NCBI GenBank assembly: GCA_021155855.1
Contig: JAJNAZ010000014.1
Coordinates: 1 to 64,000, forward strand
Direction: 5' to 3'
Origin: Solirubrobacterales bacterium
GTDB lineage: Bacteria; Actinomycetota; Thermoleophilia; Solirubrobacterales; 70-9
DNA: 64,000 bases
A program made the translations under genes and the position numbers. This document shows positions 265 through 63,783 of the stretch, in pieces. Each line of letters opens with the position of its first letter. Within the stretch, counting starts at the first letter, position 1. The notes under the pieces were generated by a model. That model saw only the letters and a program-made list of their open reading frames with translations. It made no database searches and was not told the origin of the DNA.

Positions 265-2097
265 CTACCACGACCCGCCGCCGCCACCGCCCGAGGCACC
301 GCCCCCGCCGCCGGAGAAACCGCCCCCGCCGCCCGAGGAGGACGACTCCGGGGCCACGTGGGAGGAGAAGCCGGAGCCGAAGCTCGAGCCGTCGAGCGAG
401 TGGAAGGAGTTTCCGCTGAACGCATAGGCGGTCCAGCCGACCCCGCTCGCCGCCTCGGTGGTGACCGGGGCCGGGATCCGCCCCGACTCGATCATCCGCT
501 CCGCGGTGCCGAAGGCGACGGCATAGACGAGGATTCGCTTCCACAGGGCCAGCGTCGCGGGTGGATCGTCGTCGAGCCTGGGGAAGTCGTCGGTCCAGCG
601 AGCGAACGCCTTCCAGCGGGCGCTGCGCTCGCCGCTCTCCGGGCTAAGCCGCTTGAGCCTCTTCGACGGGTAGGCGAGCAGCACGAGGCAGGTCGGGATC
701 CCGAGCAGGAGCGGCCAGAGCAGGTTGCCGCGCACCTCGACCGAGGCGATCGCGAGCAGCACGAAGGCGGCGCCGACGGGAAGCAGGGCGATCATCTCCC
801 AGCCGGTGTAGCTTCGATCCCATTCGAGCTCGCCCTCCTCGACCTCGTCGAGCGCCTTGGTCATCGTCGCCCAGCGGGCGCGCCACCCGGCATCGTGCTC
901 GGGGACGAGGTCCTTCATCTCGCTCAGGGCGACCGTTTTGTCGTCGATCAGCCGGTCGAAGAACGAGAGCGCGATCCGCTCGTGCTTGGCGAGCCCGGAG
1001 TCGGGCGGTCGTCGCTCGCTCTTGGTGATCGCGAGGTCGAGCTTCTCGTCCTCGGTGGTCGCCGACGAGGTCGTGTAGTAGCCGCGATCGACGAGGTCGA
1101 GCAATGTTGCCAGCACCGTGTCGGTCGAGTCGTCGCCCTCCTCGGCGAACGCGTAGGCAAGCGCCGGCGAGGTGTTCTCGTCCGGCGGACCCGGCAAATA
1201 CTTCGGCGCCGGGGTCGGGCGCTCCCGGGCCCGGAGGTAGAGGACGGTCAAAAAGCCAAGTGCCAGGAGGGCGACAGTCAGCGACAGCAGCGGGGCGTTC
1301 TCGCCGAGAAATCGCTTCAAGCGTGCCCACGAGTAGCGGTAGTCGTCGTCCTTCGCCCCCTCCTCGGCGAGGATCTTGCCGAGCCCATCGCCGGCCTCGA
1401 CCCGCGCCGCGCTCACGTTCTGCCCCGAGTCCCGGGGCACCAGTACCCGCATCTCGACGAACTGGCCCTTTGGGATGTCGGTCGCGGTCAGCCGGGCGAC
1501 GCCCGGATCGCGCTCGGTCTCGCCGCTCTGCACCTCACGCGGGTAGCCCCAGACGCGGTAGCGCTCGTCGGCGGGATCGAGCGCCGGATCGCTGAGGCTC
1601 GCGGAAAGCTCGGACAACCGCTGATCCCACTCCGAGCCCCACACCTGCCACTGCACGTCGAGCAGGTCGTCGTAGGCCACGACCGCGTCGACGACGCGGT
1701 AGGAGATGTCGAACGTGCGCTGTTCGTCGGAGGCTTTGTGGTGCCAGACGATTCTCACCCCGCCCGGGATCGCCGTCGCCCCGAACCGATTCGGGAACGG
1801 ATCGAAGCAGCCGAGCTCGGCGCAGCCGCCGGGCCGGTAGCGGGGCCCGCCGGGCTCCGACACGGCGATGTCGCCGATTCGCTCGCCGAAGTTGAGCTCG
1901 ATCTCGCGATAGGAGGCCTGGAAGTCTCCGTCGTAGTCGAACGTCAGCCGCTCGTTGACGAGCAGGCTGGCGTCGTTGGCGAGCCGCAGCTCTACGTCGG
2001 CGGCTGTCACCTTCGCCTCCTTGGCCGCCGTGCCCGCCGGCGAGAGTGCGAGCGCCAGCGCCGCCAGCGCGGTGATCACGATCCCCCGAGGGAGCAT
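265..2097 (-). CDS. DUF2207 domain-containing membrane protein
   Basis: This 610-residue protein has a Sec signal peptide (residues 1-25) and an extracytoplasmic beta-rich domain to about residue 260, rich in DISYRV-like strands typical of DUF2207. A membrane span follows near 265-285, then a cytoplasmic part and a second pair of spans near 435-480. The C-terminus is a long Gly/Ser tail (GGGGGFSGGGGG-like) ending in Trp, a hallmark of DUF2207/TPM-type envelope proteins. Its start lies 2 bases after the LemA stop, so the two are almost certainly one operon. The LemA plus DUF2207 pairing is common in bacteria, but its molecular role is not established. Start ATG 2095-2097. Confidence 0.88.
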   Translation of the reverse strand: MLPRGIVITALAALALALSPAGTAAKEAKVTAADVELRLANDASLLVNERLTFDYDGDFQASYREIELNFGERIGDIAVSEPGGPRYRPGGCAELGCFDPFPNRFGATAIPGGVRIVWHHKASDEQRTFDISYRVVDAVVAYDDLLDVQWQVWGSEWDQRLSELSASLSDPALDPADERYRVWGYPREVQSGETERDPGVARLTATDIPKGQFVEMRVLVPRDSGQNVSAARVEAGDGLGKILAEEGAKDDDYRYSWARLKRFLGENAPLLSLTVALLALGFLTVLYLRARERPTPAPKYLPGPPDENTSPALAYAFAEEGDDSTDTVLATLLDLVDRGYYTTSSATTEDEKLDLAITKSERRPPDSGLAKHERIALSFFDRLIDDKTVALSEMKDLVPEHDAGWRARWATMTKALDEVEEGELEWDRSYTGWEMIALLPVGAAFVLLAIASVEVRGNLLWPLLLGIPTCLVLLAYPSKRLKRLSPESGERSARWKAFARWTDDFPRLDDDPPATLALWKRILVYAVAFGTAERMIESGRIPAPVTTEAASGVGWTAYAFSGNSFHSLDGSSFGSGFSSHVAPESSSSGGGGGFSGGGGGASGGGGGGSW

Positions 2098-60012: not shown

Positions 60013-60372
60013 TTATTCCTCGAAGTGCAAGAGCTCGTCGATCCCGGTGAGCGCCAAGAGGCGCGTCACCTGGTCGCAGCCTGGGCGAATCCGAAGTCGA
60101 TCGGGGTCAGGATCGGACCTTCGTCTTGCATTTACCAGGAGTTGCAGACCGCTCGAATCGATGAACTTGACCCCGCTGAGATCGAGCACGATTCGACCGG
60201 CGCTCGACTCCTCCGCACGTTGTAGCTCAGCGTCCAGAGCCGCAGTATTCGACATGTCGAGCTCACCTACGACTGAGATCAGATACAGGTCGCCCTCGGT
60301 GTGGACCTGGATCGTTATCCGCCCTCTGTGCACGAGCCTCGCTGGTCCGGTGTCCACGTTCACCGTCTGCAC
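60013..60372 (-). CDS. STAS-domain anti-sigma factor antagonist
   Basis: The 119 residues (from GTG 60372, with GGGAG 8 bases before) carry the STAS fold: GDLYLISVVGELDMSNTAALDAEL, RIVLDLSGVKFIDSSGLQLLV and LLALTGIDELL. The phosphorylatable Ser lies in FIDSSGL. When unphosphorylated such proteins bind a serine kinase/anti-sigma factor and free its sigma factor. A longer start at GTG 60432 is possible. It is divergent from a TetR gene and close to the rsbR-rsbS-rsbT genes. Confidence 0.9.
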   Translation of the reverse strand: MQTVNVDTGPARLVHRGRITIQVHTEGDLYLISVVGELDMSNTAALDAELQRAEESSAGRIVLDLSGVKFIDSSGLQLLVNARRRSDPDPDRLRIRPGCDQVTRLLALTGIDELLHFEE

Positions 60373-60482
60373 GTCCGCATCTCCCTGACCTCCCTGGGCC
60401 CTTGAACGACCCCGATGGTTGTTTTTGACCACGCGTACCGATGCACCCTCGACCGCTTACACGCCCCGGACTGCGGCGTCGC

Positions 60483-60494: not shown

Positions 60495-60521
60495 CGGCGA
60501 CTATATCAAAGACGACGCTGT

Positions 60522-60543
60522 CTTATTTAGGGATTCGGATAAG
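60522..60543 (+). promoter_or_regulatory. AT-rich promoter-like element before the TetR gene
   Basis: CTTAT (60522-60526) and ATAAG (60539-60543) flank TTAGGGATTCGG. They form short inverted ends in an AT-rich stretch 17 bases before the TetR ATG. It could hold a -10 box or part of an operator. Confidence 0.3.
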
Positions 60544-60559
60544 GTACTCGGGAGACTTA

Positions 60560-61129
60560 ATGGCAACGAATCCCGTCCGGCAAGCTATGCAGCAGCGAGT
60601 CGCCACCGCGGTGCTGGAGGGCGCGGCGCGAACTCTGGCCGTCCAGGGGTCGGCCGCGAGTATGAGCGAGGTGGCGGCCGCAGCCGGAGTGGCGCGTGCA
60701 ACGGTATACCGCTACTTCCCGAATCGCCAGGCCCTGCTGGACGAACTGGCTCTTATGGCCCTGCAAGAGGCCGATGACCGGATTAGCTCGGCCAGGATTG
60801 ACGAGGTCCCGACGGCAGAAGCGATCTCGCGGGTGGTGCGCGCGCTGGTCGAAATCGGCGATGCGTTCATCGTCGTTGCACGGGAGCGAGCTCGCCCGGC
60901 TGACTTCGACCAGACGCTGGTCGACCCGTTGACGCGGTTTTTCGGGCGCAGCCAGGCAGACGGTGATATCCGCGATGACCTTCCTGCAGCATGGCTCACC
61001 GAAGCGCTCCTCGCCCTCACTCTGAGCGTGGCGACCTCACTGCCGTCACGGGGAGGAGAGGACACGGTTGCCGCGATCACGAGCCTATTTCTCGACGGGG
61101 CCCGGCGGCGTGGCCCTCGCCTTCCATGA
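60560..61129 (+). CDS. TetR family transcriptional regulator
   Basis: The 189 residues start at ATG 60560 behind GGGAG. The helix-turn-helix region is GAARTLAVQGSAASMSEVAAAAGVARATVYRYFPNRQALLDEL (about residues 20-62), with the standard VARATVYRYF recognition helix. The all-helical ligand domain follows. The ligand and targets are unknown. Palindromes upstream suggest autoregulation and control of the divergent STAS gene. Confidence 0.9.
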   Translation: MATNPVRQAMQQRVATAVLEGAARTLAVQGSAASMSEVAAAAGVARATVYRYFPNRQALLDELALMALQEADDRISSARIDEVPTAEAISRVVRALVEIGDAFIVVARERARPADFDQTLVDPLTRFFGRSQADGDIRDDLPAAWLTEALLALTLSVATSLPSRGGEDTVAAITSLFLDGARRRGPRLP

Positions 61130-61213: not shown

Positions 61214-62110
61214 ATGAATCAGAATCAGCCTGTCCCGTCGCTCCAGCAATCTGCGGCCGAGGCGTCGTTGCTCCACGAACTCGTCGAATACCTTCGGGAA
61301 AACCGCGGCGATCTGCGCGAACAGTGGGCGCGCCGTATCACCGACGCCGAGCTGCTCAGCGTGATGACTGCCGACGAGATCTTCTCGGAGGTCACCGCCG
61401 TCTATGACAACTACGTCGACGCACTGGAGACAGGGAGCGTCGAAACGCTGCAGGCGTACGCACGCGAGTTGTCCGAGCGGATCATCCGACGGGGCGTCGA
61501 GACGCACGAAGTGCTCGGGATCGTGCTGCTGCTGCGCGACGTGCTCGGCCGCTCGTTACTCGACAACTACGAGGAGGACCGCGACCTCCTTCGCCGGATT
61601 CTCGACGCTTACGAGCCGGCCGCCAACCGGATTGCCGCAACGGTCGGCGTGAGCTTCGTCGAGGAGCGCGAGCGCGTGATCCGCGAGCAACAGGAGGCCA
61701 TCCGAGAGCTCTCGACGCCAGTCTTGCAGGTGCGCGACCGGCTGCTGATCTCGCCGATCATTGGTGCGGTCGACTCAGATCGCGCCCGGCAGCTCACCGA
61801 ACAGCTGCTGGGGGCGATCCAGGCCAATCGGGCGCGGGTGGTGGTGCTCGACATCACCGGCGTGGCATCAGTCGACGAGGCAGTGGCGAACCACCTCGTG
61901 CAGACGGTGGAGGCCGCGCGGCTGATGGGCGCCAGGGCCGTGATCACGGGGCTGTCATCGAAGATCGCTCAGACGATCGTCGACCTTGGAGTTGACTTGG
62001 GGATGCTGAATACGGTCGGAGATCTGCAGGGTGGCTTGGAGGAGGCGGAGCGCATGCTCGGCCATCGAGACGCTGACGTGGAGCCCACAGAAAGCAGCAT
62101 CGAGAGTTAG
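61214..62110 (+). CDS. rsbR: RsbR-like stressosome protein (RsbRD-type N-domain + STAS)
   Basis: The 298 residues start at ATG 61214 behind AAGGAG. The N-terminal helical domain (LLHELVEYLRENRGDLREQW to FVEERERVIREQQEAI) resembles RsbRD-type N-domains and ends in a linker helix. The STAS domain begins STPVLQVRDRLLISPIIGAVD and contains VVVLDITGVASVDEAVANHLV and GLSSKIAQTIVDLGVDL. In RsbRA the two phosphothreonines lie in VVDT and AQT. AQT is kept, but VVDT is SVDE here, so the first site is Glu. It is the first of four tightly spaced genes encoding a stressosome module. Confidence 0.9.
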   Translation: MNQNQPVPSLQQSAAEASLLHELVEYLRENRGDLREQWARRITDAELLSVMTADEIFSEVTAVYDNYVDALETGSVETLQAYARELSERIIRRGVETHEVLGIVLLLRDVLGRSLLDNYEEDRDLLRRILDAYEPAANRIAATVGVSFVEERERVIREQQEAIRELSTPVLQVRDRLLISPIIGAVDSDRARQLTEQLLGAIQANRARVVVLDITGVASVDEAVANHLVQTVEAARLMGARAVITGLSSKIAQTIVDLGVDLGMLNTVGDLQGGLEEAERMLGHRDADVEPTESSIES

Positions 62111-62123
62111 CGGGAACCCGGGG

Positions 62124-62498
62124 ATGTCGGTCGCGATCCTACGGAAGGGCGAGTATTTCATCGCGTCGATCCAGTCGGACCTGAGCGACACGGAGGTACT
62201 CGCCCTACGGGACGACTTGATCGAGCGCGTCGGTCGCTTTCGCGCCCTCGGGATCGTCGTCGACGTCTCCGCCTTGGACGTCATCGACTCCTTTGCGGCC
62301 CGTGCACTGCGCTCGATCGCCCTAGCGGCGAAGCTGCGCGGCGCGCGCACGGTGATCGTCGGCATCCAGCCCGACGTCGCGGTGGCGATCGTTCAGTTCC
62401 GCCTCAACCTGGACCCGTTGCGCACTGCGCTCGACCTCGACGAGGCGCTTGCGCTGCTTGAGCTCCGGCCGGAGCGGAAGCCCGCGGATGGAAGGTGA
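62124..62498 (+). CDS. rsbS: RsbS-like STAS antagonist
   Basis: The 124-residue stand-alone STAS protein starts at ATG 62124, 13 bases after rsbR. SVAILRKGEYFIASIQSDLSD and VVDVSALDVIDSFAARAL are RsbS text, with the phosphoserine in VIDSF. GARTVIVGIQPDVAVAIVQF completes the fold. RsbS and RsbR co-assemble into the stressosome and sequester RsbT until phosphorylated. Overlaps rsbT by 11 bases. Confidence 0.92.
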   Translation: MSVAILRKGEYFIASIQSDLSDTEVLALRDDLIERVGRFRALGIVVDVSALDVIDSFAARALRSIALAAKLRGARTVIVGIQPDVAVAIVQFRLNLDPLRTALDLDEALALLELRPERKPADGR

Positions 62499-62934
62499 GA
62501 TCCGCGTGGGCATAGGGACGGATGCCGACCTCGTGATCGCGCGAGCGGAGGGACGCGCCATGGCGCAGCGCCTGGGGTTCCGCCGTCCCGATCCGACCTT
62601 GATCGCGACGGCGATCTCGGAGCTCGCGCGCAACCTGGTCATGCACGTCGGGCACGGTGAAATCATCATGCGCCCGATCGTCGAGGATCGCCGGTCCGGC
62701 GTGCTCGTCATCGTCCGCGACGAGGGCCCTGGCATAGCCGACGTGGGCGCCGCTCTGCGCCTGGGTCACGCCTCCCGGGGCGGACTCGGACTCGGGCTGC
62801 CGGGGGCAAGACGCCTGATGGACGAATTCGAGATCGACTCGCAGCCCGGCAAGGGCACCACGGTGACCATGCGCAAATGGCGTCTGCGCGACGATCTCGA
62901 GCGCCTACGAGAGAAGCGTCAACAGCGTGGCTGA
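62488..62934 (+). CDS. rsbT: RsbT-like serine/threonine kinase (GHKL ATPase fold)
   Basis: The 148 residues start at ATG 62488 inside the rsbS end. The GHKL boxes are ELARNLVMHVGHGEI (N box), VRDEGPGIAD (G1) and GLGLGLPGARRLMDEFEID (G2), with GTTVTM at the end. RsbT phosphorylates RsbS and RsbR; once free it binds the N-domain of RsbU and activates its phosphatase. The N-domain for such binding is supplied by the next gene. Confidence 0.92.
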   Translation: MEGEIRVGIGTDADLVIARAEGRAMAQRLGFRRPDPTLIATAISELARNLVMHVGHGEIIMRPIVEDRRSGVLVIVRDEGPGIADVGAALRLGHASRGGLGLGLPGARRLMDEFEIDSQPGKGTTVTMRKWRLRDDLERLREKRQQRG

Positions 62935-62940
62935 CCTCGC

Positions 62941-63783
62941 ATGAACGGCTTCGCCGCCACGTATCTGGATTCACTTCGCGCCTACATCCGCGAACCGTGC
63001 GAACTGACGCTGCAAACCGCCTACGAGCTCGGGCGCGACGCGGTGCAGCGGGAGCTGAGCATGCTCGAGCTTGCGATCGCCCACCACGATGCGCTGGCCT
63101 GGATGTTTGCCCGGGGACTCCAAGGAGCCGATAACGAGCAGCTTGTGCGTGCTGCCGGCCACTTCTTCCTCGAGAGCATCTCGGCTTTCGAGATGGTCCA
63201 ACGAGGACTGCGGGAAGCTCACGACGCGGCCCAGCTTGAACAACGACATGCGGAGATGCTTCGACAGCTCTCGCACTTCCTCGCCGACGCTTCACTCACG
63301 CTCGATACATCGGACTCGCTTGACGAGATGCTGCGCCTCGTCGCTGAGCAGGCGCGCGAGCTCGTCCCAGCCGACTGCTGCCTGGTCGCGACCGAAACCC
63401 AGGACAAGCCGCGAGTGCGCGCGTCCTCCTACCCCGAGAACGACCTGCGCTGGGTCACGTTCGTCAGGTGGGTGGACCTCTCTGAGGTCGACGCAGTCAT
63501 CGGGTTGACAGGTCGATCGATGCGGATCCGTGCTGGCGATATCGCCACATACGTTCGAGTCCCCGGTCGCGCGTCGGCCGGCGATCTCGTGCTGCGCGAC
63601 TGGCTAGGTACCCAGCTGACCGCCCTCGACGGGCGGGTTATGGGCTCGCTACATCTGGTCAACGAGAGGGAAGGCGAATTCACCGGTCTCCACGAGGCCG
63701 TCGTCGTGCACGTGGCCCAGATGTCGGCCGCCGCAATGGAGCGGGCATTGCTGTATAGCAGCGGGGGCAGTAGTCCGGACTAG
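62941..63783 (+). CDS. RsbU N-domain plus GAF protein without phosphatase domain
   Basis: The 280-residue protein starts at ATG 62941, 6 bases after rsbT. The N-terminal about 85 residues (YLDSLRAYIREPCELTLQTAYELGRDAVQR, then MLELAIAHHDALAWMFARG) resemble the RsbT-binding domain of RsbU. A coiled-coil linker (AHDAAQLEQRHAEMLRQLSHFLADA) leads to a GAF domain (SLDEMLRLVAEQARELVPADCCLV, MGSLHLVNEREGEFTGLHEAVVVHVAQM). It stops right after ALLYSSGG, where SpoIIE/PP2C phosphatases usually continue. No PP2C or kinase domain follows in any frame. It may be a sensor, an RsbT sink, or an adaptor to a separate phosphatase. Confidence 0.85.
   Translation: MNGFAATYLDSLRAYIREPCELTLQTAYELGRDAVQRELSMLELAIAHHDALAWMFARGLQGADNEQLVRAAGHFFLESISAFEMVQRGLREAHDAAQLEQRHAEMLRQLSHFLADASLTLDTSDSLDEMLRLVAEQARELVPADCCLVATETQDKPRVRASSYPENDLRWVTFVRWVDLSEVDAVIGLTGRSMRIRAGDIATYVRVPGRASAGDLVLRDWLGTQLTALDGRVMGSLHLVNEREGEFTGLHEAVVVHVAQMSAAAMERALLYSSGGSSPD

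What the first reader, a model, noticed from the sequence alone, without database searches (positions are those of the whole stretch)
61214..63783. Stressosome operon that ends in a phosphatase-less RsbU-N/GAF protein
rsbR, rsbS and rsbT are followed by a protein with an RsbU-like RsbT-binding N-domain and a GAF domain. It stops where PP2C/SpoIIE catalytic domains normally begin. The next gene runs the other way, so the operon output is missing. An RsbT-binding sensor without catalysis could be a new kind of stressosome output or a tuning sink for RsbT.
Basis: partly seen in the sequence, partly recalled or inferred. Interest (0 to 1): 0.6.

Follow-up and report, generated by a model that had tools for sequence, protein, structure and literature searches.

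The report
Stressosome operon with non-enzymatic output protein
A bacterial stress-sensing gene cluster ends in a protein that can still be expected to receive the stress signal but carries no enzyme to pass it on, and related soil bacteria have kept this same arrangement, so it looks like a maintained, undescribed way for a stressosome to signal rather than a broken gene.

Summary
Window 61214-63783 holds intact rsbR, rsbS, rsbT and a 280-aa RsbU_N-helix-GAF protein with no phosphatase. No PP2C/SpoIIE domain lies nearby, and the next gene runs the other way. It is not decay or a frameshift. The same short protein occurs in 13 Actinomycetota genomes, mostly Thermoleophilia MAGs, of five families in two classes. 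Where its 3' end is assembled, it always stops just after the GAF domain. On an RsbR/S/T tree these loci form one clade (100/99), nested among SpoIIE-fused relatives. The clade shares three more features that the enzyme-fused loci lack: a 16-22-residue RsbT C-terminal tail (others 1-6), a 4-residue insertion in the RsbT-receiving linker helix, and a dedicated TetR gene with a conserved operator upstream of rsbR. In 12 of 12 genomes with a readable N-domain it is the only RsbU_N protein. Best reading: an RsbT-gated, non-catalytic adaptor, comparable to E. coli RssB, which lost PPM activity. Its partner is unknown; TetR is a candidate. A sink for RsbT remains possible. New variant of a known kind.

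The parts
60508..60525 (.). Probable TetR operator (AAAGACGACGCTGTCTTA), degenerate copy of TGAGACA-N4-TGTCTCA
   Evidence: 52 bp upstream of tetR, in register with eight relatives (39-52 bp upstream); 4 of 14 mismatches, weak on its own (27/500 shuffles as good); eight relatives 0-3 mismatches
60560..61129 (+). tetR, TetR-family regulator, first gene of the conserved cluster
   Evidence: TetR_N 1.9e-12; 54-69% identical TetR only in genomes with the short RsbU_N-GAF protein, next best 43-46%
61214..62110 (+). rsbR, stressosome sensor/scaffold; Glu at the T205(Bs)/T209(Lm) phosphosite, Ser at the T171/T175 site
   Evidence: Pfam; alignment to Listeria RsbR, incl. the 9o4h chain that carries Glu at this site
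62124..62498 (+). rsbS, stressosome scaffold; phosphosite Ser (VIDSF) kept
   Evidence: Pfam, alignment
62488..62934 (+). rsbT, switch kinase; N-box kept; R19 and R23 (RsbU-contact residues) kept
   Evidence: Pfam, alignments, AF2 pLDDT 88
62881..62931 (+). RsbT C-terminal tail (17 residues after KW), clade-specific; predicted helix 136-147
   Evidence: tail 16-22 aa in 11/11 short loci, 1-6 aa in 30/30 others; AF2
62935..62940 (.). Junction where relatives carry rsbX (about 205 aa PP2C); absent here
   Evidence: a second rsbX-less locus is L147
62941..63783 (+). RsbU_N-helix-GAF protein without catalytic domain, the finding
62959..63195 (+). RsbU_N domain (RsbT-binding dimerisation domain)
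   Evidence: Pfam PF08673 E 4.3e-7
63133..63300 (+). Continuous helix (residues 65-120) from the N-domain to GAF, the coiled-coil linker
   Evidence: AF2
63268..63279 (+). Four-residue linker insertion (LSHF), clade marker
   Evidence: present in all short proteins, absent from all SpoIIE-fused ones aligned
63313..63741 (+). GAF domain; protein ends 13 residues after it
   Evidence: Pfam GAF_2 5.1e-7; Foldseek matches to DosS/DosT GAF

Best explanation
This is a stressosome module (tetR-rsbR-rsbS-rsbT-[rsbX]-RsbU_N/GAF) whose last protein is a dedicated non-enzymatic receiver for RsbT. Inferred mechanism: on stress, RsbT phosphorylates RsbS (and RsbR), leaves the stressosome, and binds the RsbU_N dimer and its linker helix, as RsbT does with RsbU. 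Instead of bringing two phosphatase domains together, the ordered coiled coil repositions a pair of GAF domains, which then bind or release another protein. Output is therefore protein-protein (adaptor-like), possibly co-gated by a GAF ligand. The adjacent TetR regulator is the first candidate partner. Shown: gene content, absence of catalysis, conservation, single origin, co-inherited changes in RsbT tail and linker, uniqueness of RsbU_N per genome, TetR operator. Inferred: RsbT binding, helix ordering, GAF output, identity of the partner.
For: No catalytic domain in the window protein or its assembled relatives. One clade on RsbR/S/T (100/99), inside enzyme-fused loci, so an enzyme was most simply lost once and the remainder kept. 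The remainder is under protein-level constraint: differences at codon positions 1/2/3 for window pairs are 0.36/0.30/0.56 in the N-domain, 0.26/0.22/0.60 in the linker and 0.41/0.31/0.54 in GAF; the linker is the most conserved. RsbT side kept: R19 and R23, named as RsbU-contact residues in PMC12143880, are invariant; on the receiver E24- and I74-equivalents are kept. RsbT tail and linker insertion occur together in the clade and nowhere else seen. It is the only RsbU_N protein in 12/12 genomes, including a single-contig one. Precedent: RssB lost PPM activity and works as an adaptor (PMC12143880).
Against: No interaction was tested. Tyr28 of RsbU, needed for RsbT binding in B. subtilis, is not conserved here, nor in the SpoIIE-fused relatives. 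All clade traits sit on one branch, so their association is one event, not several. The GAF middle is variable and partly deleted in L047 and L049, which argues against one conserved ligand. No partner is identified.
Confidence: 0.5

Rival explanations
1. Sink or timer for RsbT: the protein only captures released RsbT, with the GAF domain tuning capture; the real output is another RsbT target or RsbT itself, for example through its new C-terminal tail.
For: RsbT-facing features are kept while catalysis is gone. The RsbT tail is clade-specific. In a second enzyme-less clade RsbT is itself fused to an ECF sigma factor and the RsbU_N protein is a bare N-domain, where a capture role is natural.
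Against: No other RsbU_N protein exists in these genomes for RsbT to act on. A plain sink does not need a conserved GAF C-terminal half.
Confidence: 0.25
2. Allosteric subunit in trans: the GAF half pairs with a separate GAF-SpoIIE phosphatase encoded elsewhere and RsbT drives that phosphatase through the mixed dimer.
For: The window genome encodes three SpoIIE phosphatases on other contigs, two with GAF domains.
Against: None lies near the operon and none carries RsbU_N. Dimerisation in RsbU is through the N-domain (PMC12143880), which these lack.
Confidence: 0.1
3. Vestigial remnant of an N-RsbU/GAF/SpoIIE output on its way to loss, made plausible in the window by the loss of rsbX and a rather long branch.
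For: Window branch 0.46 against 0.17-0.42 for most relatives; rsbX absent; operator degenerate.
Against: Intact reading frames in all relatives, single old origin, codon-position constraint also for the window copy.
Confidence: 0.08
4. Assembly error or frameshift hides the phosphatase.
For: The window genome is a 75-contig draft.
Against: No SpoIIE domain in any frame of this contig; the same end point in independent assemblies, including a single-contig genome.
Confidence: 0.01

Closest known systems
Bacillus subtilis RsbU (RsbU_N + linker + PPM phosphatase)
   Same: N-terminal RsbT-receiving four-helix domain and linker helix; gene follows rsbT
   Different: No phosphatase; GAF domain instead; linker four residues longer than in SpoIIE-fused relatives; no rsbV-rsbW-sigB genes following
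rsbRSTX modules with RsbU_N-fused outputs (PP2C, GGDEF, HisKA) as in PMC9237108, and Moorella MtG (RsbU_N-GAF-GGDEF) as cited in PMC12143880
   Same: RSTX core plus a downstream RsbU_N protein, sometimes with a GAF between
   Different: All described outputs considered here carry an enzyme after the sensor; here it stops after GAF; the window also lacks rsbX
E. coli RssB (PPM-derived adaptor without phosphatase activity, PMC12143880)
   Same: A general-stress regulator of the RsbU kind that lost catalysis but kept its helical linker; acts by binding
   Different: RssB keeps a truncated PPM domain and has a receiver domain; not part of a stressosome; delivers sigma-S to ClpXP
SpoIIE-fused sister loci L067/L149 and L146 (other Actinomycetota)
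   Same: Same operon order, RsbU_N-GAF homologous along the whole length
   Different: Continue into SpoIIE; short RsbT tail; no linker insertion; no TetR found

Membership tests
Stressosome RsbRST module | RsbR and RsbS with STAS, RsbT with GHKL kinase fold, adjacent | tested here: met
Stressosome RsbRST module | RsbS phosphoserine site and RsbT N-box kept | tested here: met
   VIDSF and ELARN in alignments
Stressosome RsbRST module | Both RsbR phosphosites phosphorylatable | tested here: not met
   T171 site Ser, T205 site Glu; 0/9 short loci have S/T at the T205 site, 20/30 others do
rsbRSTX four-gene module | rsbX feedback phosphatase directly after rsbT | tested here: not met
   absent in the window and in L147; present in all other short loci that are assembled there
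RsbU phosphatase | RsbU_N domain | tested here: met
   PF08673 E 4.3e-7, above cut-off
RsbU phosphatase | PPM/SpoIIE catalytic domain | tested here: not met
RsbU phosphatase | Binding and activation by RsbT | not testable with these tools
   contact residues partly kept: E24, I74 and RsbT R19/R23 yes, Y28 no
RsbT-controlled outputs of other kinds (GGDEF, histidine kinase) | Enzymatic domain after the sensor | tested here: not met
   compare L059, L061, L066, L069, L070
DosS/DosT-type haem GAF | Proximal haem histidine | tested here: inconclusive
   Fold and weak sequence match; no histidine seen at the corresponding stretch of the short proteins, position of the haem ligand taken from memory

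The most novel reading that the evidence does not exclude
A stressosome that signals without any phosphatase cascade: RsbT binds a catalysis-free RsbU_N-GAF adaptor that directly controls a dedicated transcription factor, the co-encoded TetR, so that stress sensing reaches DNA in one protein-protein step. A parallel enzyme-less clade reaches the same end by fusing RsbT to an ECF sigma factor.
Probability: 0.2. Interest if true: 0.85.

Novelty: new variant of a known kind. Interest (0 to 1): 0.6.

Why it matters
Stressosome outputs described so far in the papers read here end in an enzyme (PPM phosphatase, diguanylate cyclase, histidine kinase). A clade that lost the enzyme but kept and co-modified the RsbT-receiving half offers a natural case to separate RsbT recognition and linker ordering from catalysis, and to ask what a stressosome can control by binding alone. 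It also gives markers (RsbT tail, linker insertion, TetR with operator) by which such loci can be recognised.

Tried and rejected
Hidden phosphatase or frameshift: rejected. Recent pseudogene: rejected. rsbX elsewhere in the genome: none found, best E 0.03. Window and L147 as one rsbX-less lineage: rejected at p-AU 0.019, so two losses are likelier, with L147 placed from under half of the columns. TetR as proof of output: not accepted, because the same TetR subfamily with the same operator also sits beside transporter-like genes away from stressosomes, so it may simply autoregulate the operon. Haem binding by GAF: not supported. STAS gene next door (60013-60432) as the general target: not conserved in relatives' neighbourhoods. 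First scan of genome contigs with the single protein found nothing; the alignment query worked.

Full report
What is there. Window 61214-63783 encodes rsbR, rsbS, rsbT and a 280-aa protein with an RsbU_N domain and a GAF domain and nothing else. RsbU_N occurs once in the genome, here. The genome's SpoIIE domains are on contigs C11, C59, C1 and C63, not on this contig (C32), and the next gene on C32, at 63809-65389 on the minus strand, is an alpha/beta hydrolase.

Is it regular? A survey of 399 genomes of the class, then of whole families and of the phylum, found the same short protein in 13 genomes in all. Ten have it complete: the window genome, G344, G362, G494, G578, G357, G242, G327, G181, and G650 of another class. 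G397 and G403 have it in pieces whose 3' end is assembled, and G473 has only the 5' part. Wherever the 3' end is present, the protein stops a few residues after the GAF domain. Named counterparts are Thermoleophilia / Solirubrobacterales / Actinomycetota MAGs. Longer relatives carry SpoIIE (for example L052-L058, L064, L065, L067) or HisKA/HisKA_3 plus HATPase (L059, L061, L066, L069, L070) after the same N-terminal domain.

One origin, long kept. A tree of RsbR+RsbS+RsbT, which does not use the protein in question, puts all 11 short loci in one clade with 100/99 support, next to SpoIIE-fused loci. The simplest history is one loss of the phosphatase followed by conservation. The reading frames are intact, and differences between the copies concentrate at third codon positions, also in pairs with the window copy; the linker is the most constrained part.

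What changed with the loss. (a) RsbT gained a C-terminal tail: 16-22 residues after the KW motif in 11/11 short loci, 1-6 in 30/30 others, predicted as a helix. (b) The linker between RsbU_N and GAF gained four residues in all short proteins aligned and in none of the SpoIIE-fused ones; AF2 shows one helix from residue 65 to 120 (mean pLDDT 85.7). (c) A specific TetR gene sits upstream of rsbR in every short locus with upstream sequence and in none of the enzyme-fused loci examined. In the class survey TetR proteins at 54-69% identity over their length occur only in genomes with the short protein, and the next best are 43-46%. (d) A palindrome TGAGACA-N4-TGTCTCA lies 39-52 bp upstream of tetR in nine of nine loci. 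It is clear in eight and degenerate in the window, where 27 of 500 shuffles do as well. The same operator stands beside related TetR genes in other genomes, next to large transporter-like genes, so TetR is a genuine local regulator, though not necessarily the output. (e) RsbR has no Ser/Thr at the T205-equivalent site in any short locus (0/9; others 20/30), and the window has Glu, the residue found in the Listeria RsbR chain 9o4h at that position. The sister SpoIIE loci also lack Ser/Thr there, so this change may predate the loss. All these traits sit on one branch, so they are one co-inherited package, not repeated evidence.

Missing rsbX. Short relatives have a gene of about 205 aa, RsbX-like (SpoIIE family E 2e-12 in L043), between rsbT and the RsbU_N gene, with overlapping or touching ends. 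In the window rsbT stops at 62934 and the next gene starts at 62941. No rsbX was found elsewhere in the genome. L147 (G650, another class) has the same rsbX-less junction. The AU test rejects window and L147 as sisters (p 0.019), although L147 is placed from fewer than half of the columns. The rsbX absence is thus probably real and has arisen more than once. In Listeria, absence of RsbX raises SigB activity without stress (PMC8765406), so an rsbX-less stressosome may be leaky or reset otherwise.

Does RsbT have anything else to act on? In 12 of 12 short-type genomes with a readable N-domain the short protein is the only RsbU_N protein, including a single-contig genome. The window genome's three SpoIIE phosphatases carry PAS/GAF or MASE1 domains instead. 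Within the family of the window, 1 of 50 genomes has a close RsbT, so the operon was probably acquired or widely lost.

How it most likely works. In B. subtilis, RsbT binds the RsbU N-domain and linker and orders the linker into a coiled coil that dimerises the phosphatase domains (PMC12143880). The RsbT arginines R19 and R23 named there are invariant here, and the E24- and I74-equivalents of RsbU are kept, while Y28 is not kept in any of these Actinomycetota proteins, enzymatic or not (the RsbU sequence was written from memory and checked against eleven residue numbers given in the paper). I infer that RsbT still orders the linker, and that this now repositions GAF domains which act by binding. 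E. coli RssB, which lost its PPM activity and became an adaptor, is the nearest precedent in working principle. The partner is unknown. TetR is the obvious candidate because it is tied to this clade, but autoregulation of the operon would also explain it.

Comparison with what is known. Described rsbRSTX outputs are PP2C, GGDEF or histidine-kinase proteins, some with RsbU_N (PMC9237108), and the same toolkit is discussed in PMC12143880. Seven searches of the paper library found no description of an enzyme-free RsbU_N output or of a TetR-linked stressosome; most subscription-journal papers are not in that library. I file it as a stressosome module, and not as an RsbU phosphatase, since the defining catalytic domain was tested and is absent.

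Limits. The genomes are mostly MAGs. No interaction was tested. The clade traits are a single evolutionary event. The window operator is weak.

Noticed in passing
L063 5929-7005, L143 1118-2188, L144 4005-5120 (G085, G636, G694; same phylum, other classes): RsbT fused C-terminally to an ECF-type sigma factor (Sigma70_r2 6e-11 to 1e-7, Sigma70_r4_2, then HATPase_c_2) in operons sigma/rsbT-rsbR-rsbS-(RsbU_N-only protein of 114-138 aa), with no rsbX. A stressosome could hold and release a sigma factor directly. These three loci form their own clade (100/99). No paper found on it.
   Followed up: partly
L047 5037-5614, L048 4065-5009, L050 3472-3948: Two or three tandem genes for small (about 63-80 aa) related proteins (LPDRAxxSLVNANxAxPINxAxAxNVLSD) divergently placed from tetR, possible TetR targets; no Pfam family for the one scanned.
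   Followed up: partly
L191 about 1625-1930 (minus), L143 554-1039, L144 1630-2067: A small secreted-looking protein (QDGLVNVNVGDVTxLExVxIGVAAQxAAxICGV) lies next to a short-type stressosome (L191) and to two sigma-RsbT fusion loci, so two different stressosome clades share a neighbour gene.
   Followed up: partly
L192, L194, L196, L199, L200: TetR relatives away from stressosomes stand beside a roughly 710-750 aa transporter-like (MMPL/RND-like by eye) gene with the same TGAGACA-N4-TGTCTCA operator: a general TetR-operator pair of Thermoleophilia.
   Followed up: partly
L145 1728-2615 and 7330-8406; L148 2-1552: Further RsbU_N outputs by reading the sequence: RsbU_N with a GHKL ATPase-like end, RsbU_N-HD-GYP and RsbU_N-GGDEF-EAL beside rsbRSTX genes.
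   Followed up: no
window 60013-60432 (minus strand): STAS anti-anti-sigma-like gene (STAS_2 1.3e-15) divergent from tetR; this neighbour is not shared by the relatives. Another STAS gene lies at contig position about 73702-74076.
   Followed up: partly
L043 4462-5364, L044 3813-4721, L046 4323-4952 (minus): In three Solirubrobacterales loci the gene divergent from tetR encodes a related coiled-coil-like protein (C-terminal Rho_N domain found in the one scanned, L043), conserved in place.
   Followed up: no
window residue C147 of the RsbU_N-GAF protein (63379-63381): A cysteine at the start of the GAF sheet is invariant in the ten aligned short proteins, a possible redox or ligand site; Ser in L050.
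   Followed up: no
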